This document shows positions 3,176 to 64,000 of a stretch of 64,000 nucleotides of DNA, one piece after another. The notes under the pieces are model-generated. The model saw only the letters and a list, made by a program, of their open reading frames with translations. It was not told where the DNA came from and searched no databases. Each line of letters begins with the position of its first letter. The stretch's first letter is position 1. Position numbers and translations under genes: made by a program. Origin of the DNA: Membranipora membranacea (lineage: Eukaryota; Bryozoa; Gymnolaemata; Cheilostomatida; Membraniporidae); contig OU612067.1 in assembly GCA_914767715.1 (NCBI GenBank), forward strand, positions 26,076,162-26,140,161, in the 5' to 3' direction.

Positions 3176-3179
3176 CCTA

Positions 3180-3222
3180 ACCTGATACATTTAATACCTC
3201 CAGCTGAGTCAGTGAACTGATG
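3180..3222 (-). pseudogene. LRR exon, acceptor-side half with a destroyed splice acceptor
   Basis: The minus strand reads SSLTQLEVL then NVSG, the first LRR strand of the module interrupted at 71-162. Where the sister copy at 50,066 has TTACAG before the exon, this copy has TTACAA (position 3,223), so the acceptor is lost. The fragment runs straight into the MITE and AACCT sequence. Confidence 0.75.
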
Positions 3223-3299
3223 TTGTAATAAATATACATGTATATTAATACATCATGTGAGATGAGGAACCAGATCCGCCTCATTTCTTCTATCTCATT

Positions 3300-3545
3300 T
3301 TCGCTCCAGGCCGTTATCCCACCTCCCGTTATCCCATGAAGCCATTTCCCCCCTGGATGAGTAACCATGCTGCCATTTTCCTGCTTGGACAATTTCTCAC
3401 CAATCCATTTTCCACCAAGACATTTTTAGTTTGGGCTGTTTTCCGGACAAGCCATTTTTCCTCCAAGAAAAATTCCAAATGGACTGTTTTCCCACCAAGA
3501 CCATTTATCACACCATGCAGTTTTTCCCGGCATAGCATTTTTTAA
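3300..3545. repeat. Degenerate minisatellite-like block
   Basis: Diverged repeats of a CCATTTTNCCACCAAGACA-like motif alternating with GTTTTCC. A copy is at 50,157-50,395. The open frames across it on both strands are artefacts of the repetition. Confidence 0.5.
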
Positions 3546-3610
3546 CATACATTTTCAGTTTTCACGTCCAGCCAACGCTGTAAAAAGCAGTTTGGGTAAT
3601 GGACCTGTGA

Positions 3611-28265: not shown

Positions 28266-33698
<5,433 letters not shown>

Positions 33699-37354: not shown

Positions 37355-40300
37355 CTATGGAGTATTTACATGTCTGACTGTCCATTTATAGTACTCATGT
37401 GACTGCACCACCCGATCCCCTTGTTTGATCTGTCTAAACTCTTTCTGCTCATCTACAAATATAACACCAAAATATGATGATTTTATTTCAGGATGGTACA
37501 TTGACAATCAACATGGTATGTCTGGGATGGGTGCAAATTCCTCTCCCATCAAAGTTTATTTATACTGATTACATAGATATTTTATCAAAGCCTTAATTAA
37601 GCTTAAAACGAGACAAACTTAAATATAACTCAAATATGATTGGTAAACAAACCTGGTGATGGTACAATCATGGTGATGGCATGATTCGGCACATTCACAA
37701 ACTTCTGATGACTGCCCTCTATCTTCATACCAGGCAGAAGATAAAGTTTCCTCCGTTTAGTAAAGTTACATACAATTTTAGGCATCTGGGCAACATAATT
37801 GACTTCTGGTTTGGCAGCAGAAGCACCTAACTTCTGTAGCTTTTCTGTTTCTTCAGTACTAAATGTAGACACTGCTTCTCCCGCCTATAAGATACATCCA
37901 GCTATCAACTGTCGACACATATCTACTTAAGACATTATCATGAAATATTTTAAACCATACACTATAACTTGATGTCGAATGTGAGTCAAAATAATATTAT
38001 ACTGTGAGCGAGCAGGGACAGGTAGCTTTTTATGACTTAACCATTCATAATATCATCATCATTTAAAAAAATTGGGATGAATTTACAAATACAAATATAA
38101 TATACTGCCTTACTATTTTAGCTATTGTCTCCACATCATATTTGTGAGAGAGATTGTAGAATGAAATTACAACTGCTCTGATGAGAGTAGAACCAAGTAA
38201 TGGGTGACGCGGAGCTAAAAATGCTGTAAAATAAATCAATAATGCTGTGAGTTATGGTATGGTCAGTAAGAATAGTTTTAAAGCTTCTCTTATTTTCAGA
38301 TACCCACACCAATAGGGTTATTCATTTTCACAGTGTACAGTTATAGCGTCCTTGCGATGCAATGGCTCTTTCGATTTCGGGCCTCCTGTAACTCACTAAC
38401 ATGAAAGTGAGCTGGGGTTCAGGAGTCAGGTGTGGTCAGGAGTGGTCTGATGGTTAAGGGTGCAGACTTGTGATCTGTAAGGTCCAGGTTCAAAACCCGG
38501 CGCCGCAGTCATTCTGGATTCGGTACTGGCGTGCCATTCTTCCTAGCCAGGTCCTTGCGGAACGGGACCAAAAATACCGGAGGTCCACTGTGTGTTTGCA
38601 CACCCCACATGCAGTAAAGAGATCCTCATTGGCCTCAAGGGTATAGGGTGCGGCTTGAGTTCCATGGGCCCTAGTAGCTGCATGGGGACAACCCTCTATG
38701 CAATGAAGACTTAGACCTAGAGCTGGGGTCCTGTTAATTAACTGATACTCACAATCAAAGGTTGGTTGCAGAATTAGGAGATCAGCTACAGATATGTCCT
38801 GATTGCCGCTGTCTACTTCATAGTCACATGACCGATGTGATGTCACATCCTGGTTGCTGTTATCAACCTGATGACTTATACCAGCAGCAGCAGAAGCACC
38901 AGCAGTGGCAGCAGGACTCCCTGTCATGAAGGTTTGGTCACAAAGCATTTCTCGTTTGCCTTCAATAACAGATAGACAGTATGAAACTCGAATTCCATCA
39001 AGTAAATAAATCATCAGTGTTTGTCACACTCCCATTTTCGTTAACTTCCGTCGATTTTGTGGTTGCCTCAGGTAAAGATGATCAGTGAAGTGTGGAATGA
39101 TACATGGAGACGGTGGTATTTTGATCAACATATAACTATATTTCAACTCACCACCAGCACAGGCTTGAACAATGACAATCTTTGGTCTGCCTCTCATGAC
39201 AGGGAAGTTTTTGGGAGACAGTAGATCATAGATATCTGTAAGTCTGATGTAGATTGCATCAGAGCCAATGATACATCCTTCATCTCCGTGACCAGTAAGC
39301 ACAAGTACAAACGCTCCCATATGCCTGTGTACTGATTGACCTGACGAGTCGGTCCTCTGGGTCTCTGTATGGATAGCTTCTACCATTTCCTGTTAGCACA
39401 GAGATGTAGAAGCAGTGTAAACAGGGAAAAAAGGGAAACATTTAGACAAAGTAAAAGTTCATTTATTGCAGTTTTCTGTTGCAAAAATAAAAAGTTATAT
39501 TAATTATACTTACAGCTGCAGTGTAGTTCTTATGATCACCTACAGTCTCAAACTCTAATTTATCCAGCATGACTCTGATATTCTTATAGTCATGCTCAGA
39601 TCCTCTCCTGGTCTCGCCGTGTTTATTTGATACGACCAATGCTCTACCTCTGACCTCTGTCATCTGATAAACTTCCTGCTAAGCATTTCATAAATTAATC
39701 AAATTATTTAGACTGCATTCTATATTGCTGTGACTTGCTGTTAAAAGAAAACGGAAGATCCCAAATATTAATTTAATAATATTAATCAAGTTTGTTGATT
39801 GATGACAGAAGGACGTTCACTGCTTGGAATTGTATATGGTGTCAAATGCTAGCGTTTCAAGTAAATCAGCACCCATAATGATCATTTACATGTTGCTATC
39901 TGATTTGCAAATAGAATAATGACACTACTTGATTTTGAGAGAGACAGTTAGGATCTGCTTTCTGCAGATTCAGCTTTATCTCCCCTTGTCCCAGTTTCAT
40001 CTCATTCACTATATCCTGTACTTCTCTCATCTCTATCCCAGGTGCAGGTGTACCGAGCACAGTTGCTGCTGATGCTGACCCTAATGCCACCACCAATCCA
40101 TCTTTGTCGGCTGTAAAATATAGGGATAAAAGTTCAATACTGATATGGTTTGCTAGTTTGCTAGGGTGTCTCTATCTTATGTGTAGAATTAATGGAAGTG
40201 ACGATGCAGTCTTGACAGTGTAAGAATTACTTGTAGCTTCCAGCCAGAGAATTTTAAATCGTTACAATCATATGGTACACGATTCCGGACTTACTGATGC

Positions 40301-43300
40301 TTGCTGGTAAAGCAGTTCTGCTCATATAATTCTCCAGCTCTTTTATTCCATTATTATCGATTTTCAGGCCTGTTAAAAATGTCAAAAAGATTGTTATATA
40401 AATTTTCTGCGTAAAGATCACAGGTAAGAATGCAGTGTTGGAATAGTAATATGAGGTAATATTTCTGTGTCAGGTGTTCAGAATGACCGGGTCAAACCCA
40501 CTGACTGTGAAAGCTTACACCATGCCAATTGATGGGTCAGCGTTTAACACCATAGGAAATCCATGTGAAAAAGATTAGGCCAACATAAAATTGTACTTGG
40601 CCTTTACCGTATTCTGGAAAAAACTAATAACTTTACGCTCACAAGAAAACACAATCCTACTTACAAGGATATCTGAGGGGTTTTGGTACTGATTCTCTCT
40701 CTACAGGGTCAGTTATGTTTTCACAAGTGCATGTTTCCTCCCCGGAGTAGACAGTTTCAGCAGTGGACACCTCAAGGCTTTCTGGCTGTCGCCGAAAGTG
40801 GTCAAACCAATCAGGATCAACACTTGAAGCTGGGGTTTCCTGGTTTGTCATGAGACAATGAGAGCAGTAGAAGACATGTTCATATCGAACTCCTTTCCAC
40901 ACAGATTCCAGTTCAGTTGTGAGACGCGTTAGGGCATCCAGTTGGCTCTTCCAAGCAGAATCGATCTTCTTAGCAGGTGTTAGTGTAATTAATGACACAC
41001 ACTTCTCTTTGGCATCATGCAGAAGGTACTTTGATATCTGGCCACCTTCTTTGACCTTCGCTCCATTTGCACCGACCTCAGGTTCATTGTACGGATTGAT
41101 AACGTAATCCATCCATGCAGCAGTGATTAGATAATAAATGTAATGCGGTGCTGGCAGCCCATTCAGAAACAGGTCTATCCTTAGTGGGATGACTTTGGAA
41201 TTATCGCCGGGAATCGATATTCTTCCTTTGCAAAAGTATGGGATGATGAACTTTTCGTTGCGATCTTTACCCACTGGTCCACAAAGGAGGTGAAATGTTT
41301 TCAGAAGTGCGACCCCAACATCGATTGGAAGTTGCGTATCTTCCTTCAGCAGATAATGAAGCAAAGCAGACTCAAGAATTCCTGTTGATTTGAACACTTT
41401 CACCATCGCCTCATACTTTCTTTTGTCGATGGTCCTGCTGTTGAAAGTGAATGGTGTAAATCTAGCTGATCTGTCATCCCAAGCTTTGTCCTCTGTATGA
41501 TCATATAGTATCTCAACTACTTCAGCAAGGATTTGAGGTTGGTGAAACACGTACCCATGCAATGTTTCTGTATCTCTGAACCACATGATTTGACTAATAT
41601 CATTCAGATACTGAAGGTTTACATGCTCTGTGTCATTTGGAAATTCTTTTATGACAGTATCCAGATGAATGAACTGCTGCTCAGTCAGAGTTTTAAACCT
41701 TTCAAGCATCTTATACCAACTACCAGGTATTTCAGATATCAGAGAAGAACCGAGAGTGACAAGCATCTGCTGTAAAGCAGCTATACTATCTGACCCTGAT
41801 TTGTCAGAGAAAGTCAGCACATTTCCTATCAGGGGTTTTGTAGTGTCTATGAAATTAATCATCGACCAGAACTTGCTTGAAGGGGATGCGACATTCTTTT
41901 CTGAAGCAATAATCTTCAGACGCAACATCTCAGTACCATCTATTAGCTGCTGTTTTCTCTGAATAAGGCATTCTTTTGTCAGCAGGTCAGAATGAGTTAG
42001 GACTACTAATGGTCGAGGGAGAGAAGGGCACGCTGTATAGAGGTGGGAGAGCCAGGCTATACAGGTATCCTGACAAGCGGCCTCCACTCCGTTTTGTGAA
42101 GCTATCCTATCAAAGTCCGAAATGTTGATCACTAACAGGGGAATGAACTGAGTTTTAAATGTCAGTTGGTACCCAAATTGGTACACCCCCTGACCACCAA
42201 AATCGACAAACATTAGCTTGGTCTTTTCATCAACTTTTGCTTCACACAGTTTGAAAACCTTTGTGGCTTCATCTAACTTCCCTACAGCGGATCTTCGTTC
42301 CGTCAGTACTCTTTTCATTTGCTGAACACTCCTCACTAGACTTGTTTTCCCTGCTTCACTCTTTCCAATAACAGTCACAGGTAGGAATCGCACATTACTA
42401 CTTTTTTCCAATTTTAGGTCTGAATAGTATTTTCTCACAGCAGTCACACCCAGTTTGCAGACAGCATATGGAGGAGATGTTAGTGCAGTACAGCCATCAC
42501 CAACAATATATGTGAGTGTTTTGATGCTGAACAGGCTCTCAGGTAGTGTGGTGAGTGATGAGTTATAACCGATAGCCAGTGTATGAAGGTTACTCAGCTC
42601 TCCTACGCTGCAATAATAAATTATGTTTTTTACTTAACGAGGAAAATCTGAAACTGTTCACGACCTTCACTGTGTATGTATTTTTTACTTGCTGAACGAA
42701 GATCTCCATTTGCATTAGCATCATTCAAACTCTTTTGCTTTTTTGTTCTTTACTTGTCGGATAACCATGTTTGGTTATGGTAGGTAGTAATGAGTCAAAA
42801 AATATATTAAAGACTGTCCGCTATATCTTTAGTCCTTAATTTAGCATATTACCGAATCCTGGTGTCAAGTAGTGTTGGGCGAGTTTGAGTTCAAAACTCG
42901 TTGGGGCGAGTTTGTGTGGGCTCGATTTCGAGTTCAGGCCATTGGGCAAAACATAGAGTTATTATATACTCTAGAGTGGACAATGTGTACAAAAATAGCA
43001 TCAGTTTTTGTCCTACTTAATTATTGCGAAATCCATGACACAACGCAATCTGGTTGTGCATACCTAGTGCCTGCATCATATAACTTATCATTGAGAATAT
43101 ATGTAACGCGCATGGAAATTTAGATTTTTAGAATGCTTATAGCTATTTTTATCGGAAATTTTTTTGTGTCACACTATGTGGATCACTTGCAGGTATTTTC
43201 ACTCGCTGCCAGTGGAATATTTTTCAATGTTTTCCCATTGAAATAAGCCAAAATCTCAACCGCCAACACATCATTGTGATGAAATAGAAATTACCTGACT

Positions 43301-46300
43301 TAGCTCATTTGATATTTGATTAAAAGAGGTACAAGTAGACTGTGTAGAGTGATCGGAAGTGTAAAAATAGTGTATATGATGTTGATGTTTACATTTACAA
43401 ATAAACAACCATCAAATAAAATTACATCACACCCATCTCCTCATCGGTGAGAGAGCGAAATTATATCGGCTTTCTCAGCACTAATATAACCATGTTAATA
43501 TCTGTCTTGTTGGTAGAATTTTCTAAAAGTTGGTAGATCGCAGAGGTGAGTGCAAATAAAAAGATTCGGACCAATGATAAGGTATCATTGGTTAAAAGAT
43601 TTTAATTCACATTGTATACTAATATATGTACCTAAAGATCAAATATTATTAAAGCCTCTAATTACACCCTCTGTACTCTTCTCAACTGAACATTGATGTT
43701 GCAAAGACGAAATATTATGGTGTTCTCTCCATAATTTGCTGCAACTGATAACTGACTGCCATTTTCATATAATCAATCTTGACAGGTATGTATCTTGAGT
43801 TGTCCATTCGACGTTTTCTTGATATTCAGCGACTCAGCAGAAGAGTTTATGCATTTTTTGATGTGTTGGCTTGAATAGTTTCGGCAATAAAAAATCGAGT
43901 GGCCACCCCGGAGAGGGAATTAAGTGCTTTAAACGACATAGCCAAACAAAAACGCGAAATCTTTGGGCAGAAAATTTTTGAACCACGGGTTACTTGCACG
44001 CCTTGTATAATTGGAAGTCATAATACTGGACAGATAAAATGAACTCACTGAGTGTAAAACATTTTAGTAAGAGATACAGGACACAGTTAAACTGGCAGGC
44101 AAGTGGCAGGGGCAAAAACCGGCTAGCCTGGTATTGTGATTTTATCGCTATGATGTGTTGGCGGTTGAGATTTTGGTGTTTTAAGGGGATAACACAAATC
44201 TTTTTATCCCCTTACTGCTAAGAAACCAATTGCAAGTGGTCTTATAGTGTGACATGAAACGTTTACAAATACATTGCTAAAAATGCTCTAAAAGCGATAA
44301 AGGCAAGCAGCAAGCTTTTTCACCTCCAATTGTTTTTCCACAGGCTACTTGTACCACATGTTATCACAAAACAATAGTATCAATCAGTAGCTGGAACTGA
44401 ACAGTTAAAAAAAACCGACTGAGTGTGCAACAGACAGGACACAGTGGCAAGTGGCAGAAACGAGCTAGTCCTGTCATTGCGATTTAGCTGATGTGTTTGC
44501 GGTTGATAGTTGACTTATTTTAATTGGGGAATAGGAAAATTTTTATACTGACTGGAAGAGAGAACACCTGCAGGTGATGTAAATGGTGTTAAATGTGAAA
44601 TTCTCTGATGAAAATGGCTATTAGTGCTCCATAAACTAAATTTGTTTGTCCAATTCTAATATTTTCAATGGTTAAGTCAATGATTTGTCCACTATCCGAT
44701 AGAGATTTTGGCTTATTTTTACGGGAAAAAATAGAAACAATTTTTCCTCTGGCTGCGAGTGAAAATTCATGCAAGTGATCCACATAATGTCAGTTGAAAA
44801 AAATTCCGAAAAAATAGCTATAAAAGCTCATACCCGATATGTATATTCTCAATGATAAGTTATACGATACAGGCACTAGCCATGCACAACCAGATTGCGT
44901 TGTGTCATGGATTTCGCAATATTTAAGGAGGATGTTTTTAGCACGGCATTGTCCACTCTCGAGTATATAATAACTCTATGGGCAAAAATGAGTTGGCAAT
45001 AATAGGAGTTATCATTGCATTGATATTGAGGGAGTAACTCCAAAAAGGATGTTGGCAATAATGGGAGTTATTATCATAGAGTTATTATATACTCTAGAGT
45101 GGACAATGCAGTGCTAAAAACGTCCTACTTAATTATTGCGAAATCCATGACACAACGCAATCTGGTTGTGCATGGCTAGAGCCTGTATCATATAACTTAT
45201 CATTGAGAATTTACGTACTGGGTATGGCAATTTAGATTTTTAGAGCGCTTATAGCCATTTTTTCGGGAAAAAATTTTTGTGACACCATGTGGATCACTTG
45301 CAGGTACTTTCACTTTCAATTTCATGACGCAAAAAAATCTGGTTGTGCGTGGATAGTGCATGAATCGTTGACTTTTTCATTTAAAAGATTAGAATTGGAC
45401 ATACAAATTTAGTTTATGGAGCACTTATAGCCATTTTTTCAGAGAATTTCACATGTAACACCATTTACATTTAGATCACCTGCAGGTATTTCATCTTCCA
45501 GTCAGTATAGAAATTTTCTTATTCGCCCATTAAAATAAGTAAATATCAACTGCAAACACATGAGCTTAAATCGCAATGACAGGGCTTCGACTGTGTCCTG
45601 TCGCTCTAACTAATATGTCGCACACTCAGTCAGTTTATTTTATCTGTTCAGTTCCAGCTACTGAGGATGATTTGTGATAACATGGGGTACAAGTAGCATG
45701 TGGAAAAGCGATTGGAGGTGAAAAAGTTCGCTGCATGCCTTTATCGTCTTTAGATTTTTTTCTTTGTAAAACTTTTCATGTCACACTATTAGATGACTTG
45801 CAAGTGATTTCTTTACTAGTCAGGGGACAAAATGATTTGTGTTATTACTAAAAATCTCAACCGCAAATACATCATCAGGATAAAATCCGAATTATCTGGC
45901 TAGCCGGTTTTTGCCCCTACCACTTGCCTGCCAGTTTGATTGTGTCCTTTCTCTCTAACTAAAATGTTACACACTCAGTGAGTTCATTTTATCCGTCCAG
46001 TATTATAACTTCCAATTATACAATGCGTATAAGTAACCAGTGGTTCAAAAATTTTGAGCTTGAAGATCTCGGGATTTGGTTTGGCTATGTCATTTAACGC
46101 TCTAAATTCCTTCTCCAGAGTGGCCACTCGTGTTTGTATTGCCGAAACTATTCAAGCCAACACAGCAGGTTAAATCAATAAATACATAAACTCTTCTGCT
46201 GAGAATAGCAAAAAACGTCAAACGGAAAACTCGAGATTAATACTTGTCCAGATTGACTCTAGATTTTCTTAAATTCCCTAACTCAGTCTGGAAAATTGTA

Positions 46301-49300
46301 TGAAAATTGCAGTAAGTTATCAGTTGCAACACATTATGTAGAAAACACCATAACATTGTGTCTTTGCAACTCCAATCTTCAATTGAGAAGAGTACAGAGG
46401 GCGTAATGTGAGACTTAAATAATTTATTTCATCTTTAAACCACCTATAATAGTATACAATGTGAATTAAGATCTTTTAACCAAATTAATATATATCATTG
46501 GATCAATTCTTTTTATTTGCACCCACCCTCTGCGTTCTACCAACTTTCAGAAAATTCTACCCACACAACTGATATTAAGATGGTTATATGAGTGCTGAGA
46601 AAGCCAATATAATTTCGCATTCTCACCGATGTGACATTTGGTTTGCAGATATTTCAGATTTTTCACCATACTCAAAAAAAGAGATCATTTGGTTCAGGGG
46701 GGGGGGGGTGGTGTGATGCAATTTTCTCTGATGGTTGTTTATTTGTAAATGTAAAACATCAACATCATATACAATACTTTTACACCTCCGCATCCGATCA
46801 TTCCTACACAGTCTGCTTGTACTTCATTAAATCAAAAATAAAATAAGCCCCTTGAGTGTGTAACATATAAGTAAGAGAGACAGGAAACAGCTAATATGGC
46901 TGGCAAGTGGCAGTGAAAAAAATTAAGCTAGCCCGGTAGTTTCTAGTTCATCACAATGATGTGTTTGCGGTTGAGATTTTGGCTTATTTTAATGGGAAAA
47001 CATAGAAATATTTTCTAATGGCTGCGAGTGAAAATACCTGCAAGTGATCCACATAGTGTCACATAAAATTTTTTCCAAAAAATTGGGTATAAGCGCTCTA
47101 AAAATCTAAATTTCCACGCCCAATACGTACATTCTCAATGATAAGTTATATGATATATGCACTAGCCATGCACAACCAGATTGCGTTGTGTTATGGATTT
47201 CGCAATAATTAAGTAGGACAAAAACTGATGCTATTTTTGTACACATTGTCCACTCTAGAGTATATAATAACTCTATGGTTATTATACACTAATATTGAGG
47301 AAGTAACTCAAAAAAGGATGTTTAACTAAGAAAATGATGTTTCACAACTAATAGACCCAGAGGGTAAAACATTGACCTACTGTATTAATGAATATTTATA
47401 GCACCCAACCAAACTGGTGAACCAACTAGTTGAATGCATATTCACAGTAGACATGGACATACATTAACACGCTGTATCTTGAAAACCGCAATATTTGTAT
47501 GATTATACAGAACTCGAACTCGCTCGAACTCGACTCGAAAATTTCGGTATAAGCTCGACTCGATCGTCATCACTGCTGATTTGCCCATCACTAGTGTCAA
47601 ATTCTCAAACTCCTACTCATTAATGTAAGAACCCAGTTTTGCTGGTAATTGCCAATAAAACCTTCAGGTGGTAGTGGGTAGACAACTAGCGCTAGAACAA
47701 AGAGGATTCTCACTCTCCCCTAAATCCCCTAAATACCCTAAATTCCATTAGATCAGCAGTTGTAAGTTTTATTAACAAAGTCACAAAAAAACCTCCCATT
47801 CCAATATACCTAAATATACTTTAACTTGCAAACAGATGAGATATATATACTCTGCTTCACCACAGAATAACCACATACATTAAATGCAGTCAGAGCCATT
47901 TTGATATTTGATTTGCAATTTAGTAGATGGCTAAATTTTAACTGTGACCAACTAGTAAAAAATTATTATAAAAAAAAAATTTTCTTGATATTAGTATATA
48001 CCAGTTCATCATGTCATGTGAGATGTGATGATGACCATTGTAAATAAATTATATTGTTTATCAAAAACGCAAATCACTCAAAATTACAGTAATTATGTTG
48101 ATGTACTTGCAGTATCTTTTTAATACATTTATCTAAAGTGATGAAATGATATTTCAACCAAAATTTCATTAGCCATAGACTGACTTCCTTGTGATCCAAT
48201 ATACATCTTTCATCAAAAAGATTTGATAGGTAAATGTTAGATTGTTTTGCAGACTCAGATTAAGTATAGGATGTCACACTCACCACTCAGGTAGCTGTTT
48301 GAGATCACATCCGACCACACGTAACTCTCTCAGTGATCTCAGCTCACACAGCCACCCAGGTAATGTGTGTAGAGCTCCATTACCTGATACATCTAATAAC
48401 TCCAGCTGAGTCAGTGACCTGATACTGTAATATATACATGTATATATAATAATACATCATGTGAGATGAGGAGCAGGATCCACCCCATTTCTTCTATCTC
48501 ATTTCGCACCAGGCCGTTAGATAGTCACGGCTGAACAACATTAGTAATTATTCTTGAGACATATAATTTTTAGTCTGCATCCGTACTATGCAGCCTTATA
48601 CAATAAGCCATAGTTGGCAGGAAGGCAACATAATTTTTCATCACCTTATTTTTAAGTTATTTATGTATTTATTTTATGTATTTATTTTATTTTATGTAGT
48701 TATTTTAAGTTATTTAAGCCATTTATGTCACATCATGAAAAACATTAGTAATAATGAATTGTTGCTGACACTAAAAGTATATATTTATATAGAAGTTAAT
48801 ATTTCAAAAAATTGAGGACTACGGATTGCAAATATCTTTTATCAGTGACAATGCCGTAGTAAATAATAGACTGAGATTAAGAGATACAGACTCACTGTCA
48901 AACAACTAGCTATGATGGAATTTTCTACACTTAATTACTACATTAGTTATCAATGGAGGATTTTAATTTTATATTTGAATCCTAAAATCTAAAACTCAGA
49001 CAGAAGTTTGGCAAATTCCAATGTGAAAGCTAATTTATTGGAATGTAGGGATAAAAGATAATATAGTTATCGTTATCAACGTAAGACATTATTCTTACTT
49101 AAACTTGACCGATTTCTCAAGTCTGAATCCTTATAACACAGCCTTTTGATAATGTATCGCTGGTAAAAAGACAACCTGTTTATTCACTTTAGCTTAGTTA
49201 TTTATATTTCACAGCCTCTTCAAAGGTAAGGATTATTGAAGAAATAAAAAACAAAATTTGAATCGACTCGACAGACTCACCACTCAGGTAGCTGTCTGAG

Positions 49301-52300
49301 ATCACAATCTCTAACACTTAATTCCCTCAGTGCTCTCAGCTCACACAGCCACACAGGTAATGTGTGTAGAGCTTTATTACCTGAGGATTATGCTGATTGA
49401 CTTGAATTTTTAGAGCTGCCTACTCTCTGTGATTCTATTTCTGAGATGTCTAAAATTGTTTTTAACAATATTGCGTCCAATGAAGACCATCTTCTTTTTA
49501 GTTGTGTTGTTTTTAACTGTGCAAAGGTATCCTCTTGCCTACATACCATCTATCGCCCACCAAAGTGCAGGACACAAAAGCATTTAAAGAGCTTTTTTCC
49601 TTACCACATGTCAGCTTTCAACAAAGTTAAAACTTCTCATTTTCATGTACCAATCCAATTTTATCGCTTGTTGATACATGGATTAAAATAATAAACCTAA
49701 CCTAACCTAACCTAACCTACTGGCTGGTTCACATTGTCCCAGATGACATTGGGATGCCATCTCAGATGCTTATCCCAGATGGTCCCAGTCTTATGTTCAC
49801 ATTACAAAATTCCTCCCAGACAAGCAGTTAGGTTTTAGTCTGGGATAGTGCTGGGATGAAGTTCACATTCTTTAGGGTCGTCCCAGATAGTCCCAGATCG
49901 ACCCAGATCATCCAAATGTCCGGTTCACATCGCACCCAGATGCAAAATGAGTCTGGGTTCGTCTGGGACAGCATCAAGAAAGTTCGACGCTTGCGACCAT
50001 CCCAGATAACCTAACCTAACCTAACCTGATACATTTAATACCTCCAGCTGAGTCAGTGAACTGATGCTGTAATAAATATACATGTATATTAATACATCAT
50101 GTGAGATGAGGGGCCAGATCCGCCTCATTTCTTCTATCTCATATTCGCACCAGGCCATTATCCCACCTCCCGTTCTCCCATGAAGCCATTTCGTTCCCAC
50201 CCTGGATGAGTTACCATGCTGCCATTTTCCTGCTTGGACAATTTCTCACCAATCCATTTTTCCACCAAGACATTTTCAGTTTGGGCCGTTTTCCGAACAA
50301 GCCATTTTTCCTCCAAGAATAATTCCAAATGGACTGTTTTTCCACCAAGACCATTTATCACACCATGCAGGTTTTCCCGGCATAGTTTTTTTTAACATAT
50401 ATTAACAGCTTCCACGTCCAGCCAACGTTGTAAAAAGCAGTTTGGGTAATGGACCTGTGAGTTGATTTCATTGTTATAGTTTGTGGATTTTATTTTGAGT
50501 TTTCCAGCGCACAAGTAATTGTACAACTGACTGATTTCAACAAAATGGTCTCAATGTTATAAAATACTTTTTCAGCAAAAGAACTTTATTGTGCCTATAG
50601 CCTTTTCTGTACCAATCAGAGAAGAACTGCGAGATCATATTAATGTAATTGAATAACTTACTGACCAATGGGCAGAACATAAATTAGGGCATTGGGACAT
50701 TTTTTCACACGCCATTTTGCTACTACACATTATTCAAAAGTCGTACAGCATTCTTCGATCCATATGTCTTGCTGAAGAGATATTCGGTAAACGCTGACAA
50801 GGTTATTGGCAAATTCCCTCTTTAAAATGAAGCTTACACCATGTGTGTAGACTGCATGGCCTGACCAGGCATGTCAAAGTTTGTTGTACTAATTTCCAAC
50901 CTATTCTCAATAACAAACAAACAATGTAAAGAAAATTAAACTCCTTTTGGGGTTTTGAGGCTACAACTTTTTTCCGAGACAATTTCATGATATTCAAGTT
51001 TTATCAAACTTTGAAATTGTTTCCTCTTGTAATAGTCGGGGATCCCGAGATCAAAATCCATGTTGAAAGTGTAAAAGCTGAGTTTCATACATTATTTAGT
51101 ATAAGTGTTATATTTTTGTATTCCACCCTCAAAACAGTAATCACAAGGGGGGTTTTATGGAATTTCACTCATGTTAATCAGGAGGGACAACTTTTTTCAT
51201 AATCAACTGTTCAGAAGATATATTTAACTTGTGATAAAAGTTTTCAATATTTTGAGCTAATACTCTGGATTTAGTTTCCTGATACCATTAGCTTTGCATA
51301 GGAATTTAACATCATTTACCCAGATTGTTGATGTGCTGCCAATAGCGCAACGTCATGACATTACATTAATTTTTTGTGTTTGTCAACTTGAAAGTTTTAA
51401 ACTGAATCAGCAGAAATTTTTATAAGTGTCTAGAGAATCATAATTGAAAAATTTATTCAGCTATCTCTGATCAGTTGGGAATTATAATGAATTTAACCCG
51501 AGTATGCCCCTTTATGAATGAAGTGAATTGACATAACGCTATACAATCTTGATCGTATTGTGTGTAATTGTTGCAAATTGTTGTGGATTGATCAAAGAAG
51601 ATTCTGTATTGTCTTTGTACATAACCTAGTTAGAGCCAGCTGCTGGATGAATCCTGACGTAACAATATTAACTTTAAATGATAAGTCAGCGGCCAAACAG
51701 ACAAAGTCCTCTATGCCGTAACAAATTACCTGTTTATTCACCCTACACAAGAAAATGTTATATAAAACTTTAATCTTAGAGTTCAACAAATGGCTTGATC
51801 CTTGGCTGCCAGACAGACAAAGTTTTTTATGCCGTAACATTTTTTTTTCCGGTTTCTGTTTATTTGTAATAAAAGGTTCTTCTAAAAAAAAATGATGACA
51901 GCGGAGCGATCAGGTAGTCAGAGACTAGAATGGCGACCGCCCGATTAACAGTATGACCAAGAACTATGTGGCCGAAGACAGCCCAAGGAACCCCGCCCGC
52001 CACGCCTGCTGACTATGCACCACACCCCCACAGGGCCCTGGTCAGCCGACCATGCAGACCAAGGGGCTCACAAACCCTTTCACCAGGAAGGTACCTGTTG
52101 GACCTTACCCCCTGCAGTTTTTGGCTCTTTGAGGGACAACTCCAAATTTACTTCTTCTGAAACTAACATTTGGTGAGCTCACACAGATCTCACAATTTGA
52201 AATTGTTTTTGAATATAATATTAAAAAGCGATATTTAAATAGCATTTGCACCGGCATAATTTTAAGGTGCTCAAAGAATGAAGTTACATGGCCTCGTGGA

Positions 52301-55300: not shown

Positions 55301-58300
55301 GAATAAAACAACTTGGAACATTGAACTAGCTTGTCAACCAGAAACCAGCAATCAGAGTTACCTGAATCTGAAAAAGGATTTACCAGGGGTTGCTTGCCCT
55401 CAGGGAAGGTTGTTGAGGGCTGGAGACCTGGCCGCCATTCTTTTGAGAACTCTGGTAGTAATACCATCTTGTACGGGTGCCTATTTGACTTTCAGGGATA
55501 TTAGGTGTTTCTGTACGCCCTAAGGGGCAATGATGTTTTCAGGCATCTTGGAGGCGAGTGTGAGGTATTGCTATGGGATGGGGTCTGAATGATGTGAGAA
55601 TACTGACGTGAATTGTTTATTTTGAACTTCTGCCTTGCCTGCCAGTCAAATATGCCAAAAATATGTTGAGCTATTTCTCTTGACTGGTTATCCTCATCAG
55701 TAAACATTCTGTGGACATACTCCGGATGTTGTTCCCTCATTTTCATTCCTCATTTTTGACCACTTGCCCGCAGGTGATACAATTAACCTTTATTTACTTA
55801 CTTACTTACTTTACTAAATAAGGCCGCTGTGCCTTTTACACCTCTTTTTCAATCTGTTCATCTTCAATCTCATGGAGTTGCTTGTCAATCCAGGGATGCG
55901 AATCTCTGCGTCATTACTGCTTCTGGGGCACATAGATGTCCATGCCTTGAGATTCGTGACAACAAGGGTGTTTTTCTGTCAGGAGGAGAGGCTATAAGAT
56001 GGACTGTGTTAAACCGTAATTGCCAAGTATGTCTCTGAATTTGGTATGTAGGGTTGGTATGTGGAGCCAGATGTAAGTGTCATATTTGACCAATCGAAGC
56101 TATAAACTCGAGTAGGCCATCTTGTTTCTGTTATATTAAAGCATTCTGAAATTGATTCGCCTCAACTCAAGCCTGGTAATGTGAAGGTACGTAATTTTTG
56201 CTACAATATTTGTGGAATTTCTGTGGCGGGGATCCAACATCAGAAGATAAAATATAGTGGTTGTGGTCTGAGAAAACTACCTGGCGTTATTCGGGGCCTT
56301 AGATATCCTATCTTCTCAAATAAACTCCTTTGTGATTATTCGGAACCAACAGTGATGCCATAACCTTTCCATCAGCGGTGTAAGGAAGATGAAAAGATAG
56401 TTGGGACATTAAACTGGAAAGCGAGTCATACATCTATCCATCATTCAGTGAGTGCCCCAGGTTTTTCCATGACCATTCCTTGTGCACAACAGGAATTCTA
56501 AATTTTCGGCAGCAAAAAAACAAATCTTCTTGGTGTAATGAACCCAAAAATGACCAAAAGTGTAATTGATTGAATTTCCTACTTGAGGCCCAGTTCTAGA
56601 CTGATGAAGCTATTATATGGCCAATTTTGATCAAAATGTGGTGCGTTTTTTTTATCCTGTAACTGTATGCCTGATTGTTAATGCAATAGACATGTGCTTT
56701 CCCTCTGTGCAGCCTACGATGAGATTATGAATCAATTAGTCTCCAAATGAACCTCCATCCATCTTGATGACTTGCAATTACTTTTCTAACAGCTTTATTC
56801 CCTGTACAATACGGGACCTGAAACTAACCAAGGACTAAACAAGGCCAATACACCAATGTAGGATGGGTAACGGTTACTGCTCTTAACCTGACGACCCTAC
56901 CCACGTGATGGTAAAACGGAAAAAATGTTATTCTATTAGGTAGGCTAAACCTATGTCCAACAATAAAGGCACGACTTTTCTGCCAGCTAGGTATCTAGAG
57001 TGATGTTGTCTTGATTTCAGTGATTTAAGTTGATGAAAGTAAAGCTTGGTCACAAAATTTTGTCTGAATTGGTTTTTGAGACATAACACGTCTTAAATGT
57101 ACCGTTGAGAATCATATGTTACAAAAGGAGAAGAAAATCTAAATAAATTTGTGGGTAGTAAAAAACAGGTTAATTGTGTCTGAAAATGAGTTAAAATTAT
57201 ATGATAATGTTCAGAGTGTCTCTAGCTCGGATTTCTGTTAATTTAAACCTTTTTTAAAACAGCTAAACACTTAGAATTTGGAACAATGACACACAATACG
57301 ATCATGATCGTATAGCGGTTACGTCAATTCACTCCATTAATAAAGGGGCATACTCTGATTGAATTCATTATAATTCCCAAATGATCAGAGATAGATGAAT
57401 AAATTTTTCAGTTATCATTCTCTAGACACTTATAAAAATTTCTGCTGATTCAGTTTATCTGACAAGCCCATAGATAATTGAAAAAAAACCTTTCAAGATG
57501 ACAAACACAAAAAATTAATGTAATGTCATGACGTTGCGCTATTGGCAGCACATCAACAATCTGGGTAAATGATTTTTAATTCTTATGCAAAGCTAATGGA
57601 ATATATACTTTTTTATTGGCATCAAAAGTCATCTCATTCGAAATGTTTTGCACTCAGTGCCAGAAAACAATTTTTTTTATAACAAAAAAAGAGAAACAGA
57701 AGGGAAATAATATCATCAATGATGTTGGTCAAGTCGATAATATATGGTTGAAAAGTAAAGTTTTGAATGAACTGAACTTTTCTTTAGATCTCAAATGTCA
57801 CGGTAAAGAATTGTATGTAGCAGAAACTTTGTATCTTAGATTGTCTGTATGATATAAAAGTAAATGTTTATCACGAAAATTGAACTTGGTAGTGTTTTTA
57901 AATCCTCTATATATAAATGGAGGTGTTAAAAAATTGTTTATCTCATGCGCAAAAAGTGAAGTGAAATAACAAACAAGCTTAGGAAGAGGTAGGAGTTGTA
58001 ATGATTGTGTAATGGATTCGGTTGAAATGAGATAATACGGGATGTAATGCACATTGGCGATAATGCGTAAAGCCCGTTTTTGCAACAAAAATAATCTATT
58101 GAGGGCTTTATTGCAGGACAAGTTGCCAATGATATGGATACAATATATAAGGTGACAATAGATAAACTGGAAGTAAAATGTGCGGGCACTTGCTATATCC
58201 AAGAAGTATCTCAAATTTTGAAGTAGGTAAACATTCCGTTGTACCTTTTTATATACATACTCTAGAGTCTAGATGATCCTGCCATATAAGCGAGTCATTC

Positions 58301-61300: not shown

Positions 61301-62923
61301 GTCTGGTAATCTATACTTACATAACTTGTCATTGAACTTTGCGAAGAGATTTCCGAGTGCCAAATGGGATTTCGGCAAACAAAAATTAATAAACACCTTT
61401 AGAACAAAAAATCGAAAAAGACGAAATCTGAAACTGAATCTCATGAAGATGAGAGGAGTTAAGAAATTTAGTGTATGAATTCAAAGCATCCAATTTTGGG
61501 AGATACAGCAGAAACTCATTTAAAACAACTTAGAGGGGTTCAATTACTTGTAATGACAGGTATTCTAAAAGTGAATCTTAGTGACCATAAAACTCTTTGT
61601 TTTCAAAAGACAACCTTTACAAAAAAGGGATAAAGAGGCACATTGCAGAGAGATGATTAATTCATGCCTTCTTGTTTACAAGAAAAGGCAAAGCTGTCAT
61701 CTATTTCTATGAAAATTGTTCCACATGCGCACTGTACTCGCTGTCTACCGGGGGCCCTTGGGCTCTTCGCCAGCTTCACTAGGATTAAGGCTGAAGATCT
61801 GCCCACTCTCCTCTAGAACTCACATTGTATTGGTGAAATTAATACTGATTGAATGCAAAATATTATTTACAATAATTAATTATTGTGGGGCTATGGCTAA
61901 GTGGGAAAATCACTTGATTGGATGACGGGAGGTGGGAAAATGACATCGAGAAGTTTTCCTAACTATAAACTAACTAGAAATGCAGGGGTGTATACTAAGA
62001 GATGTAATAGAGATATAAATAAAATCTGGCTTCACCGGGATTTGAACTCAGGCCTCTCGCGCAAAGCCATCTAATCCGGGTGTTTAAATATAATGATGTA
62101 GTGGGTATAAGTAGTAATAAATAGAAAAGTTAACCTCATAGTAATGGTGTTACTCCTCCTTTGTCACTATGGTCTAAGAACCAATTTGGCTTCACCAAGA
62201 ATTAACCTTGGGCCTCTTGCGCTGTGATCGAGCGCACTAGCCACTCAGCCACGCCTACCCACTGGAGCTCACAGATTTAAATTGAATATGAATTGGAAAA
62301 GTAAGCTGTTGTGTAATTTTGTTAAAATTTTCTGTTTTTCAAGCTTTTATGGCAGAGATCAGGCAAAAAAAGTGTAAAATATATTATATGCACACCCTCA
62401 CCTGGTTTTACTATAAATTAGTGGTTGAAGACAGGGCTTTGATTTGGCCATTTCTTCTATTTTTTAAAAAACATGTTTTGAAAAAGTGTTATGAGGCACT
62501 GGATATGGGTCTCTTTTATTTTATATACATATACATTTATCATAAACACAAAACTTAAAATTTGTGGACAAGTTACCCAAAGTTGTACTTAACTGTGAAG
62601 TGGTTCAGTTACAAAGTTGAATATTTAGGAGCTAGCCTGCAATAATTATGCAAGAACCAAAATTAAATCTTACAGCCTTCTAATATGAAAATGCAGAAAT
62701 AAATTTACCCTTTTATGATCTTTTTTATGCAAAATAAAATTTATATTGATCATCAGACTGAGAATAGCAGGTACAGACTCACCACTCAGGTAGGTTTTCA
62801 AGACCACAGAACCTCACATGTAACTCTCTCAGTGATCTCAGCTCACACAGCCACTCAGGTAATGTGTGTGGAGATGTATTACCTGATACATCTAATACCT
62901 CCAGCTGAGTCAGTGACCTGATA
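37355..62923 (-). CDS. LRR-ROC-COR-caspase fusion protein gene, 5' end beyond the window
   Basis: Exons on the minus strand: LRR modules 62,783-62,923 and 48,284-48,424 (others in between are decayed); ROC-COR 40,665-42,607; 40,295-40,369; 39,929-40,110; caspase 39,514-39,675, 39,152-39,389, 38,753-38,920, 38,114-38,223, 37,653-37,884; last exon 37,355-37,452 ending TAG. All phases agree from 48,424 to the stop, and every splice site is GT-AG. LRRs would sense a ligand or partner, ROC-COR is a GTPase and dimerisation switch as in LRRK/Roco proteins, and the caspase domain would be the output. Caspase His (TGHGDEG) and Cys (QACAG) are present. No death or CARD domain is seen in the visible part. 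The nearest known layouts are Roco proteins with kinase outputs and caspases with death-fold prodomains; this combination is unusual to my knowledge. A cytosolic role in cell death or immunity is inferred. Confidence 0.85.
37555..37560 (-). terminator. Possible alternative polyadenylation signal of the caspase gene
   Basis: AATAAA on the minus strand lies in the last intron. If the donor at 37,647-37,652 is not used, translation stops at TGA 37,630-37,632 and this signal follows about 70 bases later. A shorter C-terminus is possible. Confidence 0.3.
37653..39675 (-). CDS. Caspase (C14) domain exons of the fusion gene
   Basis: Five exons encode a full caspase fold. The p20 start is EVYQMTEVRGRALVVSNKHG with the pocket Arg in RRGSEHDYKNIRVMLDKLEF. 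The catalytic His is in VLVLTGHGDEG and the catalytic Cys in IVIVQACAG. A linker rich in Asp follows (QVDNSNQDVTSH and CDYEVDSGNQD). The p10 part reads ISVADLLILQPTFD, LAPRHPLLGSTLIRAVV and VAQMPKIVCNFTKRRKLYLL. The usual QACRG is QACAG here. The EVD-S in the linker looks like a caspase self-cleavage site (inference). Length and order match animal caspases, not metacaspases. Confidence 0.85.
38435..38730 (+). mobile_element. tRNA-derived SINE, family 2, in a caspase-gene intron
   Basis: A tRNA-like head with an A box in TGGTCTGATGGTTAAGGGTG and B box GGTTCAAAACCC (38,487-38,498) is followed by an unrelated body of about 220 bp. It is antisense to the host gene, in the intron between exons 38,753-38,920 and 38,114-38,223. 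The minus-strand open frame across it is chance. Confidence 0.7.
40665..42607 (-). CDS. ROC-COR GTPase exon with a terminal LRR
   Basis: One 1,943-bp exon. The first 50 residues close the LRR array (LSNLHTLAIGYNSSLTTLPE). A ROC GTPase follows, with P-loop GKSEAGKT (exon residues 81-88), DFGGQ as switch motif (135-139) and THSD as the G4 motif (204-207). COR follows (for example LRIDLFLNGLPAPHYIYYLI) with a Cys-rich tail (FYCSHCLMTNQE). ROC proteins typically use the THxD form. All nucleotide-binding residues I can identify are present, so the switch looks functional. Confidence 0.9.
42870..47593. mobile_element. 4.7-kb hAT-like foldback element with 8-bp target duplication
   Basis: The ends are TAGTGTTGGGC and, inverted, TAGTGATGGGC. 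The flanks are GTGTCAAG (42,862-42,869) and GTGTCAAA (47,594-47,601). Ends of this kind with an 8-bp duplication indicate the hAT superfamily. Subterminal CGAGTTCGAG-type repeats occur at both ends. The interior is a nest of inverted repeats: about 42,955-43,500 against 46,560-47,285, and about 44,580-44,985 against 45,070-45,480, around a centre near 45,030. No transposase frame is present. It sits in the intron between the ROC-COR exon and the LRR exon at 48,284. Confidence 0.7.
48284..48424 (-). CDS. Intact 141-bp LRR exon of the caspase-fusion gene
   Basis: It reads SLTQLELLDVSGN, then LPGWLCELRSLRELRVVGCD and LKQLPE, two LRRs of about 23 residues. The splice acceptor is TTACAG and the donor GTGAGT. 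Both ends split a codon after its second base, matching the next exon (42,607) and its sister modules. Confidence 0.85.
49281..50066 (-). pseudogene. LRR exon split in two by a retroposon
   Basis: Halves are 49,281-49,384 and 50,024-50,066, each ending in the duplicated ACCTGA. Removing the insertion and one duplicate leaves exactly 141 bp, the size of intact sister exons. Both splice signals (TTACAG, GTGAGT) survive, but the insertion separates them. Since flanking modules have symmetric phases, skipping this exon would keep the protein in frame. Confidence 0.85.
49385..50023 (+). mobile_element. Second copy of the AACCT-tailed retroposon, with nested MITE
   Basis: Homologous to 163-862 plus the palindromic element. 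The body runs to about 49,693 with AATAAA, about five AACCT units follow, then the MITE-like segment (49,720-50,010) and more AACCT units. The target duplication is ACCTGA. Confidence 0.7.
50157..50395. repeat. Degenerate minisatellite-like block, second copy
   Basis: Matches 3,300-3,545. The unit resembles CATTTTTCCACCAAGACATT. It belongs to the segmental duplication that also carries the split LRR exon. Confidence 0.5.
51578..53134. mobile_element. Composite insertion in the left arm, with direct repeats
   Basis: The insertion limits are set by comparison with the uninterrupted right arm. Inside, about 51,722-51,800 and 52,571-52,650 are direct repeats (CTGTTTATTCACYCTACACA, then AGAAAATGTTATATAAAAC). 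52,650-53,133 has a TATATAAATGAG box and repeated GTTGAGTTTTAC-like motifs, suggestive of a long terminal repeat, but termini are not clear. A LINE fragment lies between. Confidence 0.4.
52105..52479 (-). pseudogene. LINE reverse-transcriptase C-terminal fragment
   Basis: The open frame reads NLYYTFFYPHLIHGVEFWGH and ILLLQKSALRVILKIHPRGH, the conserved region just after the RT domain in CR1/L2/Jockey-group LINEs. No RT core accompanies it, so this is a truncated relic. Confidence 0.7.
53760..55330 (-). pseudogene. Degenerate LINE reverse transcriptase with several frameshifts
   Basis: Fragments in order: SSMADVISVVPLGSVIESTL and VRLFADD (about 55,060-55,240, RT motifs with FADD), HQDLQDVLQTLS (about 54,400-54,450), KYLGVTFNSKLTW (about 54,240-54,290), RLEAVQRRAA (about 54,030-54,060). 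They lie in different frames with stops between them. The catalytic box FADD is recognisable, but the element is dead. Confidence 0.65.
57798..58214 (-). pseudogene. ORF2 C-terminal part, out of frame with the main ORF2
   Basis: It reads FYFQFIYCHLIYCIHIIGNL and LFLLQKRALRIIANVHY, the segment that follows the RT core in these LINEs. It continues the upstream ORF2 after a small disruption near 58,240-58,260, where a TATATA run and a CTAGAG duplication occur. Confidence 0.8.
58249..60480 (-). CDS. LINE ORF2: AP endonuclease and reverse transcriptase
   Basis: 743 residues. The AP-endonuclease covers about 1-230, with LNIRGLASKL, LCLAETFL (catalytic Glu), IIIFGDFNIDLL and SDHFMIV. The reverse transcriptase covers about 430-690, with YRPISVLPVLSKIFEKH, LLFLDFKKAFDCVSH, GVPQGSILAPTLFLIFINDL and AYADDTVF (YADD box). 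It nicks target DNA and copies its RNA there. The frame ends prematurely (TAA after SRVCI); the true C-terminus follows in another frame. The start is an internal ATG pair just after ORF1 ends. Confidence 0.9.
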   Translation of the reverse strand: MMAMNFHSAYLNIRGLASKLEEVRLILSDHKFSILCLAETFLNDNDDSCLYEVPGYTMIRRDRLCNNGGGLLCYVHDSLVIEHLENLDLYMDESITVKVRPRSQKSFLVTYLYRPPQSKASWNTDFSEFVERCYGLNDEIIIFGDFNIDLLNPTSKNRWLDNVTSPLLLNQLISEPTRIANSSRTLIDHIYSSKSDNIAKSGVIKYSLSDHFMIVASREIDRNVKISRQRCKVTFLDYSFATPQNIFNTFSRENFGYLLYERSIDSMFEKFYSHLNHLISKLVFEKTLFVRTHNLPKWLDDEVKMNIKIRDQLKQNGDWEGYKKQRNYVTNMIRQKKKRAISNTIKESKGNTKPVWDVLKNKKKETFPATNLSADQFNSHFTSIAKSITKNLVVTDEMTFPVSKHNLTDIPQFTPFTCTRILFHIPDSKSTGPDRITVKMLKLDWPYIVDIVTDMFNRVLSKGQFPSTWKLARVSPIHKSGDINNPSNYRPISVLPVLSKIFEKHINHHLQEYLTKNKIIHELQCGFRKGHSCSDSLFKIISDSLVEKINGNVMTLLFLDFKKAFDCVSHVLLHNKLKACGIGGNMLKLLDTFLTDRRQFVKLNNIESCRLPITIGVPQGSILAPTLFLIFINDLLTSSKSDSSSYAYADDTVFLSSNKNLQKLKAKASEDLSGILDWCNRNRMVINVQKSHYMLLNISDPLYDLELYIGHEKLNRQRTTRLLGFVLNDSLIWQDHLDSRVCI
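60486..60911 (-). pseudogene. LINE ORF1, C-terminal part only
   Basis: About 140 residues in the frame that stops 6 bases before ORF2. It has an RRM-like sequence (MLRGIPIDADDELVIKEI, then MRIFEVKFDTQDQYNKVLSQ) of the kind found in ORF1 RNA-binding proteins of these elements. The 5' end is lost at the insertion border, where ACTATATCCAGAGTAT also occurs twice. Confidence 0.65.
61165..62300. repeat. Segmentally duplicated block, right-hand copy
   Basis: It continues the target sequence after the 10.1-kb element and is closely related to 1,885-2,600 and 4,200-5,250. It contains repeat fragments with tRNA-like parts at 62,030-62,080 and 62,187-62,254. No coding exon. Confidence 0.65.
62187..62254 (-). 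repeat. tRNA-like sequence, probably a SINE head
   Basis: The minus strand reads GCGTGGCTGAGTGGCTAGTG, an A-box region like tRNA-Ser/Leu, then CGCTCGATCACAGCG and a B-box-like GGTTAATTC. The B box is degenerate and acceptor ends do not pair well, so a repeat fragment is more likely than an active tRNA gene. A truncated relative is at about 2,563-2,600. Confidence 0.5.
62783..62923 (-). CDS. Intact 141-bp LRR exon, probably of the caspase-fusion gene
   Basis: It reads SLTQLEVLDVSGNTSPHTLP, then EWLCELRSLRELHVRFCG and LENLPE. Acceptor TTACAG, donor GTGAGT, same symmetric phase as 48,284-48,424 and 5,928-6,068. Flanking sequence to 64,000 repeats that at 48,240-49,500, so it arose by segmental duplication. 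Assignment to the gene at 37-48 kb requires splicing over about 14 kb of mobile DNA. Confidence 0.7.
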
Positions 62924-63801
62924 CTGTAATATATACATGTATATATATAAAAATACATCATGTGAGATGAGGAGCAGGATCCACCCCATTTCTTCTATCT
63001 CATTTTCGCACCAGGCTGTTAGATAGTCACGGCTGAACAACATTAGTAATTATTCTTGAGACATATAATTGTTAGTCTGCATCCGTACTATGCAGCCTTA
63101 CAATAAGTCATAGCTGGCAGGAAGGCAACCTATTTTTTCATCACTTTATTTTTTAAGTTATTTATGTATTTATTTTATGTATTCATTTTATTTTATGTAG
63201 TTATTTTAAGTTATTTATGTGATTATTTAAGTTATTTAAGCCATTTATGTCACATCATGAAAAACATTAGTAATAATGAATTGTTGCTGACACAAAAAGT
63301 ATATATTTATATAGAAGTTAATATTTCAAAAAATTGAGGACTACGGATTGCAAATATCTTTTATCAGTGACAATGCCGTAGTAAATAATAGACTGAGATT
63401 AAGAGATACAGACTCAATGTCAAACAACTAGCTATGATGGAATTTTCTACACTTGATTACTACATCAGTTATCAATGGAGGATTTTAATTTTATATTTGA
63501 ATCCTAAAATCTAAAACTCAGACGGAAGTTTGGCAAATTCCAATGTGAAAGCTAATTTATTGGAATGTAGGGATAAAAGATAATATAGTTATCGTTATCA
63601 ACGTAAGACATTATTCTTACTTAAACTTGACCGATTTCTCAAGTCTGAATCCTTATAACACAGCCTTTTGATAATGTATCGCTGGTAAAAGAAAACCTGT
63701 TTATTCACTTTAGCTTAGTTATTTATATTTCACAGCCTCTTCAAAGGTAAGGATTATTGAAGAAAAACAAAATATGAATTGACGCGACGTGACAGCCTCA
63801 C

Positions 63802-63883
63802 CACTCAGGTAGCTGTCTGAGATCCTCGGTGCTCTCAGCTCACACAGCCACACAGGTGATGTGTGTAGAGCTTTATTACCTGA
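63802..63883 (-). pseudogene. Third split LRR exon half, with a frame-shifting deletion
   Basis: Homologous to 49,281-49,384 but lacks 22 bp in the second LRR, which destroys the frame. It ends at the same ACCTGA insertion point. Confidence 0.75.
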
Positions 63884-64000
63884 GGATTATGCTAATTGAC
63901 TTGAAATTTTAGAGCTGCCTACTCTATGTGATTTTATTTCTGAGATGTCTAAAACTGTTTTTAACAATATTGCGTCCAATGAAGACCATCCTCTTTTTAG
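63884..64000 (+). mobile_element. Third copy of the AACCT-tailed retroposon, cut by the window edge
   Basis: GGATTATGCTAATTGACTTG onward matches 163-280 and 49,385-49,500. The tail lies beyond the window. Confidence 0.7.

What the first reader, a model, noticed from the sequence alone, without database searches (positions are those of the whole stretch)
37355..48424. LRR-ROC-COR-caspase fusion: a one-protein sensor, GTPase switch and protease
Seen: eleven phase-compatible exons in one direction encode LRRs, a ROC GTPase with P-loop, DFGGQ and THSD, a COR region and a caspase domain with His and Cys. Known: Roco proteins usually carry kinase outputs and caspases usually carry death-fold prodomains. 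Inference: a direct link of a GTPase switch to a caspase would bypass adaptor assembly, which would be a distinct kind of cell-death or immune receptor.
Basis: partly seen in the sequence, partly recalled or inferred. Interest (0 to 1): 0.88.

Follow-up and report, generated by a model that had tools for sequence, protein, structure and literature searches.

The report
Leucine-rich-repeat GTPase fused to caspase
An animal gene, probably from a sponge, appears to encode in one protein a recognition surface, a GTP switch of the Parkinson's LRRK2 kind and a caspase; bacteria have this layout, but I found no report of it in an animal.

Summary
On the minus strand, ten exons (48424 to 37355) join by nine GT-AG introns into one 1,128-codon frame: LRR, ROC, COR, an 85-residue linker and a complete p20/p10 caspase (Pfam E 1.6e-22) with its His, Cys and two pocket arginines. 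A fold of the ROC-COR exon (pLDDT 81) matches LRRK2, LRRK1 and bacterial Roco.

Against 'two genes': of 23 relatives of the ROC-COR exon, 20 reach its end, and 18 of these continue as a splice donor at the same place would read, so the gene seems not to stop after COR. No transcript and no second genome could be checked.

Between two recent duplicates one LRR exon has changed faster than its introns (87% against 96% identity, p 5e-5), as in a receptor with variable targets.

Not categorically new: bacterial LRR-ROC-COR proteins with caspase effectors and amphioxus LRR-caspase fusions are in print. The animal GTPase-caspase link is the new variant.

The parts
62783..62923 (-). intact LRR exon (two 23-residue repeats), phase 2-2; likely upstream exon of this gene or of a neighbouring copy
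   Evidence: tblastn 76% identity of 62922-62785 to exon 1; splice borders
50026..50066 (-). first part of a split LRR exon
   Evidence: joins to the second part across a 645-bp insert at AG|GT, giving an intact two-repeat frame
49281..49380 (-). second part of the split LRR exon
48284..48424 (-). LRR exon (exon 1 of the model; not the gene start)
   Evidence: acceptor and donor, phase 2; LRR_8 in Pfam
40665..42607 (-). exon 2: last LRRs, ROC GTPase, COR, Cys/His-rich tail
   Evidence: model pLDDT 80.7, matches CtRoco, LRRK1, LRRK2
42340..42366 (-). ROC P-loop (GKSEAGKTS)
   Evidence: Lys at 42348-42346; P-loop pattern in 22 of 23 relatives, the miss (P0021) starting after it
40295..40369 (-). 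exon 3: linker
   Evidence: phase 1-1, coding score just under the 95th percentile; skipping it keeps the frame
39929..40110 (-). exon 4: linker up to the p20 border
   Evidence: coding score above the 99th percentile; skipping it breaks the frame
39514..39675 (-). exon 5: start of caspase p20, pocket arginine (39609-39607)
39152..39389 (-). exon 6: p20 with catalytic His and Cys
   Evidence: GHG and QACAG aligned to CED-3
38753..38959 (-). exon 7: p20/p10 linker with candidate cleavage site YEVD/S (Asp 38813-38811)
   Evidence: cleavage is inference
38114..38223 (-). exon 8: p10 with pocket arginine (38209-38207)
   Evidence: coding score -0.7
37653..37884 (-). exon 9: end of p10 and a tail
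37355..37452 (-). exon 10: C-terminal tail and stop
   Evidence: AATAAA after the stop at 36760

Best explanation
One animal gene encodes an intracellular LRR-ROC-COR-caspase receptor. Shown by sequence and fold: the LRR, the ROC-COR GTPase module, a caspase with its catalytic pair and Asp pocket, and a continuous spliceable frame. Inferred: the LRR concave face binds a foreign or danger ligand; this alters the ROC nucleotide state; ROC-COR, which in a bacterial Roco changes between dimer and monomer with nucleotide, brings two caspase domains together (or keeps them apart at rest); paired caspases activate by proximity and cut their own p20/p10 linker, probably at YEVD/S; freed caspase then cuts cell proteins, giving death or an immune output without a CARD or death-domain adaptor. 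Which nucleotide state is 'on' is not known. The confidence given is for the one-gene architecture; for this mechanism I would say about 0.4.
Against: No RNA and no second genome: the genome search did not complete in 13 attempts. No relative could be followed past its COR exon, so the caspase link rests on this locus alone. A search with exons 3-10 found no relative among the 7,996 candidates scored. The donor argument is read from protein letters; of the other two relatives one (P0004) has R, which fits only a GTAGG-like donor, and one (P0025) ends at the Cys. Exon 3 is short and only mildly coding-like, and holds an AATAAA (40347) that could end a ROC-COR-only transcript; in-frame ATGs in exons 3-5 could start a caspase-only one. 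Donor of intron 4 (GTAGTG) departs from consensus. LRR: the other LRR piece in the duplicated block (49380-49283) is 97.4% identical, like the flanks, though with 22 gap columns against a damaged copy; replacement against silent alone is not significant (p 0.16), and the other five cassette pairs give dN/dS 0.86 to 1.5. The p10 arginine lacks the usual Trp beside it.
Confidence: 0.72

Rival explanations
1. Two neighbouring genes: an LRR-ROC-COR gene whose last exons are elsewhere or small, and a short-prodomain caspase gene starting in exon 3, 4 or 5.
For: Only 295-989 bp separate the parts; sponge-like genomes can be compact (recalled). In-frame ATGs in exons 3-5; AATAAA at 40347 and ATTAAA at 39777. 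Exon 2 read through its donor meets a stop at once (PCK*).
Against: The end of the COR exon reads like a donor in 18 of 20 informative relatives, so COR seems not to be the end; exons 3 and 4 are frame-compatible and lead in phase to the caspase.
Confidence: 0.2
2. One locus, several products: the full LRR-ROC-COR-caspase and also shorter ROC-COR-only or caspase-only isoforms. This overlaps with the best explanation rather than excluding it.
For: Exon 3 is symmetric (phase 1-1) and can be skipped in frame; the poly(A)-like and ATG signals named above; brown-algal ROCO genes splice LRR exons alternatively (PMC11378527, passages).
Against: No direct evidence for any isoform here.
Confidence: 0.3
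3. The caspase part is a regulator without activity, or the locus is decaying.
For: Trp beside the p10 arginine replaced by Pro; damaged LRR copies nearby (63883-63824, 162-73).
Against: No stop or frameshift in ten exons; catalytic pair and both pocket arginines kept.
Confidence: 0.1
4. Assembly or bacterial origin artefact (a misjoin, or a bacterial LRR-ROC-COR-caspase gene).
For: Duplicated blocks at 1-5 kb, 48-51 kb and 61-64 kb could trouble assembly; the same domain order is known in bacteria.
Against: Nine spliceosomal-type introns, no N in the window; the caspase is CED-3/caspase-2-like; the window holds a LINE-type reverse transcriptase and a LEM-3-like exon. These duplicated blocks lie outside exons 2-10.
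Confidence: 0.04

Closest known systems
Bacterial AP-GTPase (LRR-ROC-COR) conflict proteins with C-terminal caspase effector (Kaur et al. 2021, PMC8195603, section 15 read)
   Same: Order LRR, GTPase, COR, then an effector that may be a caspase; fast-evolving LRRs; proposed counter-invader role.
   Different: Here an animal gene with introns and a CED-3-like p20/p10 caspase; no bacterial caspase fusion was fetched or compared here.
LRRK1/LRRK2 and Chlorobium tepidum Roco
   Same: LRR-ROC-COR fold.
   Different: A caspase sits where LRRKs have a kinase; CtRoco has no such enzyme (recalled).
Amphioxus LRRs-caspase and TNFR-caspase hybrid proteins (PMC2575513, passages)
   Same: Sensor joined directly to a caspase with an intact QACXG site, bypassing adaptors.
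   Different: No GTPase switch is mentioned; the words ROC, COR and GTPase do not occur in the main text. Supplements not seen.
CED-3 / caspase-2 (C14A)
   Same: p20/p10 plan, catalytic His and Cys, pocket arginines.
   Different: LRR-ROC-COR instead of a CARD prodomain (prodomain types recalled).
Brown-algal LRR-ROCO genes (PMC11378527, passages)
   Same: LRRs in phase-2 exons that duplicate and diversify before ROC-COR.
   Different: One repeat per 72-bp exon there, two per 141-bp exon here; the word caspase does not occur in that paper.
Aplysia ROC-COR proteins with TIR or Death domains (PMC9334734, passages); Trichoplax ROCO figure whose legend lists CARD and TIR (PMC4104024)
   Same: Animal ROC-COR joined to immune or death modules.
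   Different: Adaptor-type modules, not a protease.

Membership tests
Roco (ROC-COR) GTPases | ROC GTPase with P-loop, DxGGQ, THxD | tested here: met
   Motifs; Roc profile E 4.4e-5, below gathering; matched at E 0.01 by 23 of 24 family members; fold match
Roco (ROC-COR) GTPases | COR immediately after ROC | tested here: met
   COR-A E 3.5e-4, below gathering, matched by 17 of 24 members, COR-B by 1 of 24; near full-length fold match to CtRoco, LRRK1, LRRK2
Roco (ROC-COR) GTPases | GTP binding and nucleotide-dependent dimer/monomer change | not testable with these tools
   Needs protein
Caspases (C14A) | p20 and p10 with His/Cys pair | tested here: met
Caspases (C14A) | Asp specificity pocket (two arginines) | tested here: met
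   Aligned to CED-3; neighbouring Trp absent; which residues form the pocket is recalled
Caspases (C14A) | protease activity and self-cleavage | not testable with these tools
   Needs protein
CARD/DED initiator caspases | death-fold prodomain before p20 | tested here: inconclusive
   No death-fold family listed at E up to 10 in the 85-residue linker, but the filters drop weak matches and no fold of the linker was made
Bacterial-type AP-GTPase conflict proteins | order LRR, GTPase, COR, C-terminal effector | tested here: met
Bacterial-type AP-GTPase conflict proteins | effector differs among paralogues | not tested
   No relative could be followed past its COR exon
Bacterial-type AP-GTPase conflict proteins | common descent with the bacterial caspase fusions | not tested
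   No bacterial fusion was fetched; the genome search did not complete

The most novel reading that the evidence does not exclude
An animal family of LRR-ROC-COR receptors ends COR at one fixed phase-1 splice donor, and downstream effector exons, here a caspase, are swapped at that border, while upstream phase-2 LRR cassettes duplicate and diversify. This would be an animal counterpart of bacterial one-protein sensor-GTPase-effector defence proteins, exchangeable at both ends by exon shuffling.
Probability: 0.3. Interest if true: 0.85.

Novelty: new variant of a known kind. Interest (0 to 1): 0.6.

Why it matters
Animal death receptors and inflammasomes are thought to need adaptors to bring sensor and caspase together. 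A GTPase-gated caspase in one chain would test whether a Roco switch can set caspase pairing directly, and would give a simple read-out for what the ROC-COR nucleotide cycle does, an open question for LRRK2. It would also link animal cell death to bacterial one-protein defence systems.

Tried and rejected
Paralogues and relatives with DNA context: the genome search 'own' for PF00656 did not complete in 13 attempts. The search with exons 3-10 gave none among the 7,996 candidates scored. So whether relatives also carry a caspase is unknown.

Death-fold prodomain in the linker: none listed in Pfam up to E 10; the weak hits there (GhoS 0.029, BET 0.14), the C-terminal tail's AstE_AspA hit (0.008, below cut-off) and the Cys/His tail's XendoU hit (0.13) were judged chance.

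The first AlphaFold model (9 sequences) was poor, pLDDT 53; its fold search already pointed to Roco, but I rely on the second model (24 sequences). The folded translation leaves out the split codon at each end of the exon. Of the 36 proteins found by two searches (each scored only 7,997 candidates), 23 serve as relatives; P0009, P0011 and P0029 were aligned once and left out of the model; ten weak hits (P0010, P0012, P0013, P0030-P0036) were not used.

Literature: ten searches of open-licence PMC papers, at most 20 listed per search (six searches had more hits than were listed), and ten papers opened, mostly by passages. None of what I saw names an animal ROC-COR-caspase. Subscription papers were not searchable. 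The Dysidea avara figure legend lists caspase and COR among domains of NLR-type proteins (PMC12909245, section read); the figure is not held, so whether both occur in one protein is not known.

Full report
Gene model. On the minus strand ten exons between 48424 and 37355 join through nine GT-AG introns of phases 2,1,1,0,0,1,1,0,1. The joined frame has 1,128 codons from the first LRR exon to the stop; an AATAAA follows at 36760. It is a splice acceptor. Tblastn of the product against the window finds more LRR exons on the same strand: one split in two (50066-50026 and 49380-49281), one intact (62923-62783) and a damaged copy at 63883-63824; others at 6067-5930, 3221-3180 and 162-73 lie 3' of this gene and may belong to a next gene. 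The true 5' end was not found.

Caspase. The nearest solved sequence to exons 3-10 is CED-3 (E 2.3e-14), then caspase-2. The alignment places the catalytic His (GHG), Cys (QACAG) and the two arginines of the Asp pocket (in TRRGSEHD and APRH); which residues form the pocket is recalled from caspase-3. The p10 Trp beside the second arginine is Pro. The p20/p10 linker holds YEVD followed by Ser, a candidate self-cleavage site (inference).

One gene or two. Direct proof needs RNA. Four points favour one gene. First, 23 relatives of exon 2 (42-54% identical) were found in metagenome and genome proteins. Of these, 20 reach the conserved end PxP[L/F]xxPC; in 18 of 20 the next residue is E or K, and after it the sequences diverge except between close pairs such as P0001/P0002 and P0005/P0014. 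TGT followed by GAG or AAG is what a donor T|GTRAG reads as. One (P0004) has R, a poorer fit (GTAGG), and one (P0025) ends at the Cys. This is inferred from protein letters; their DNA was not seen. So the gene seems not to end at COR. Second, in the window exons 3 and 4 are in-phase: exon 4 scores 15.0 bits against 4.1 at the 99th percentile of segments from this gene's introns, exon 3 scores 2.8 against 2.9 at the 95th. The measure is weak for short exons: exon 8, a sure caspase exon, scores -0.7. Third, skipping exon 4, or 3 and 4, hits a stop; skipping exon 3 does not. Fourth, EVYQM at the start of exon 5 resembles the stretch before p20 in other caspases (recalled), which suggests an upstream exon. 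Against: AATAAA inside exon 3, in-frame ATGs in exons 3-5, and a weak donor for intron 4. I put about 0.8 on the existence of a transcript that spans ROC and caspase.

LRR cassettes. Each LRR exon holds two 23-residue repeats with phase-2 borders, so exons can be added or lost in frame. The blocks 49501-48255 and 64000-62753 are recent duplicates. Their flanks are 96.1% identical (969 of 1008, gaps aside), but the LRR exon 48423-48286 only 87.0% (120 of 138), p 4.8e-5. Replacement changes exceed the flank rate (about 16 of 103 against 39 of 1008, p 1.4e-5), silent ones do not (p 0.64). Ten of the eleven changed residues sit at positions marked x in a repeat register that I set by eye. Against: the other LRR piece of the block is 97.4% identical (74 of 76, with 22 gap columns, its partner being damaged); replacement against silent alone gives p 0.16; the other five cassette pairs give dN/dS of 0.86 to 1.5. 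Diversifying selection is likely, not proven; gene conversion could also matter. Brown-algal ROCO genes show the same kind of phase-2 LRR exon shuffling (PMC11378527, passages).

Mechanism. CtRoco is mainly monomeric with GTP and dimeric without nucleotide (PMC6337361, passages; PMC11052575, abstract and outline). Initiator caspases are activated by pairing (established, recalled). The simplest reading is that ligand on the LRR changes the ROC state and hence whether two caspase domains meet. The direction is open.

Prior art and novelty. Kaur et al. 2021 describe bacterial LRR-AP-GTPase-COR proteins whose C-terminal place is taken by at least 24 domains, caspase among them (PMC8195603, section 15). 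Amphioxus has LRRs-caspase and TNFR-caspase hybrids, the latter shown by cDNA (PMC2575513, passages). Aplysia joins ROC-COR to TIR and Death domains (PMC9334734, passages). In ten searches of open papers I saw no animal ROC-COR-caspase (limits under Tried and rejected). I therefore call it a new variant of a known kind. The caspase is CED-3-like, so a separate animal origin of the fusion seems likelier than transfer from bacteria, but this was not tested with a tree.

Organism. The caspase type, introns, LINE and a LEM-3-like exon say animal. Sponge is my guess from the style of the genome and of the metagenome relatives; no call names it.

Noticed in passing
50066-49281 (-): A 645-bp insert (50025-49381) splits an LRR exon exactly at AG|GT, begins with TTAGG-type repeats (GTTAGGTTAGG) and ends CCTCAG, so that splicing it out would restore the exon: looks like a recent intron gain.
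   Followed up: partly
471-862: About 78 copies of AACCT, a TTAGG telomere-type repeat; the same repeat stands at 49694-49719 inside the LRR-exon insert.
   Followed up: no
49501-48255 and 64000-62753 (-): Recent duplicates in which one LRR exon differs about three times more than its flanks.
   Followed up: yes
1-4905, 48255-51032, 61165-64000: Blocks with LRR exons recur in three places, 82-94% identical, suggesting an array of such genes.
   Followed up: partly
43442-46631: A 3.2-kb fold-back (inverted repeat, 77%) fills much of intron 1.
   Followed up: no
58252-60489 (-): Open LINE-type frame with endonuclease and reverse transcriptase, among the upstream LRR exons.
   Followed up: partly
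20736-21023 (-): Reading frame matching a LEM-3-like GIY-YIG nuclease (E 2.2e-13).
   Followed up: no
32847-33152 (-): Reading frame resembling a poly(A) polymerase palm domain (MTPAP-like, E 3e-4, below cut-off).
   Followed up: no
40890-40665 (-): A Cys/His-rich tail after COR (YCSHC ... C ... PxPLxxPC) is kept in the family; the first motif is in 21 of 23 relatives, the two misses ending before it. Perhaps a zinc site.
   Followed up: partly
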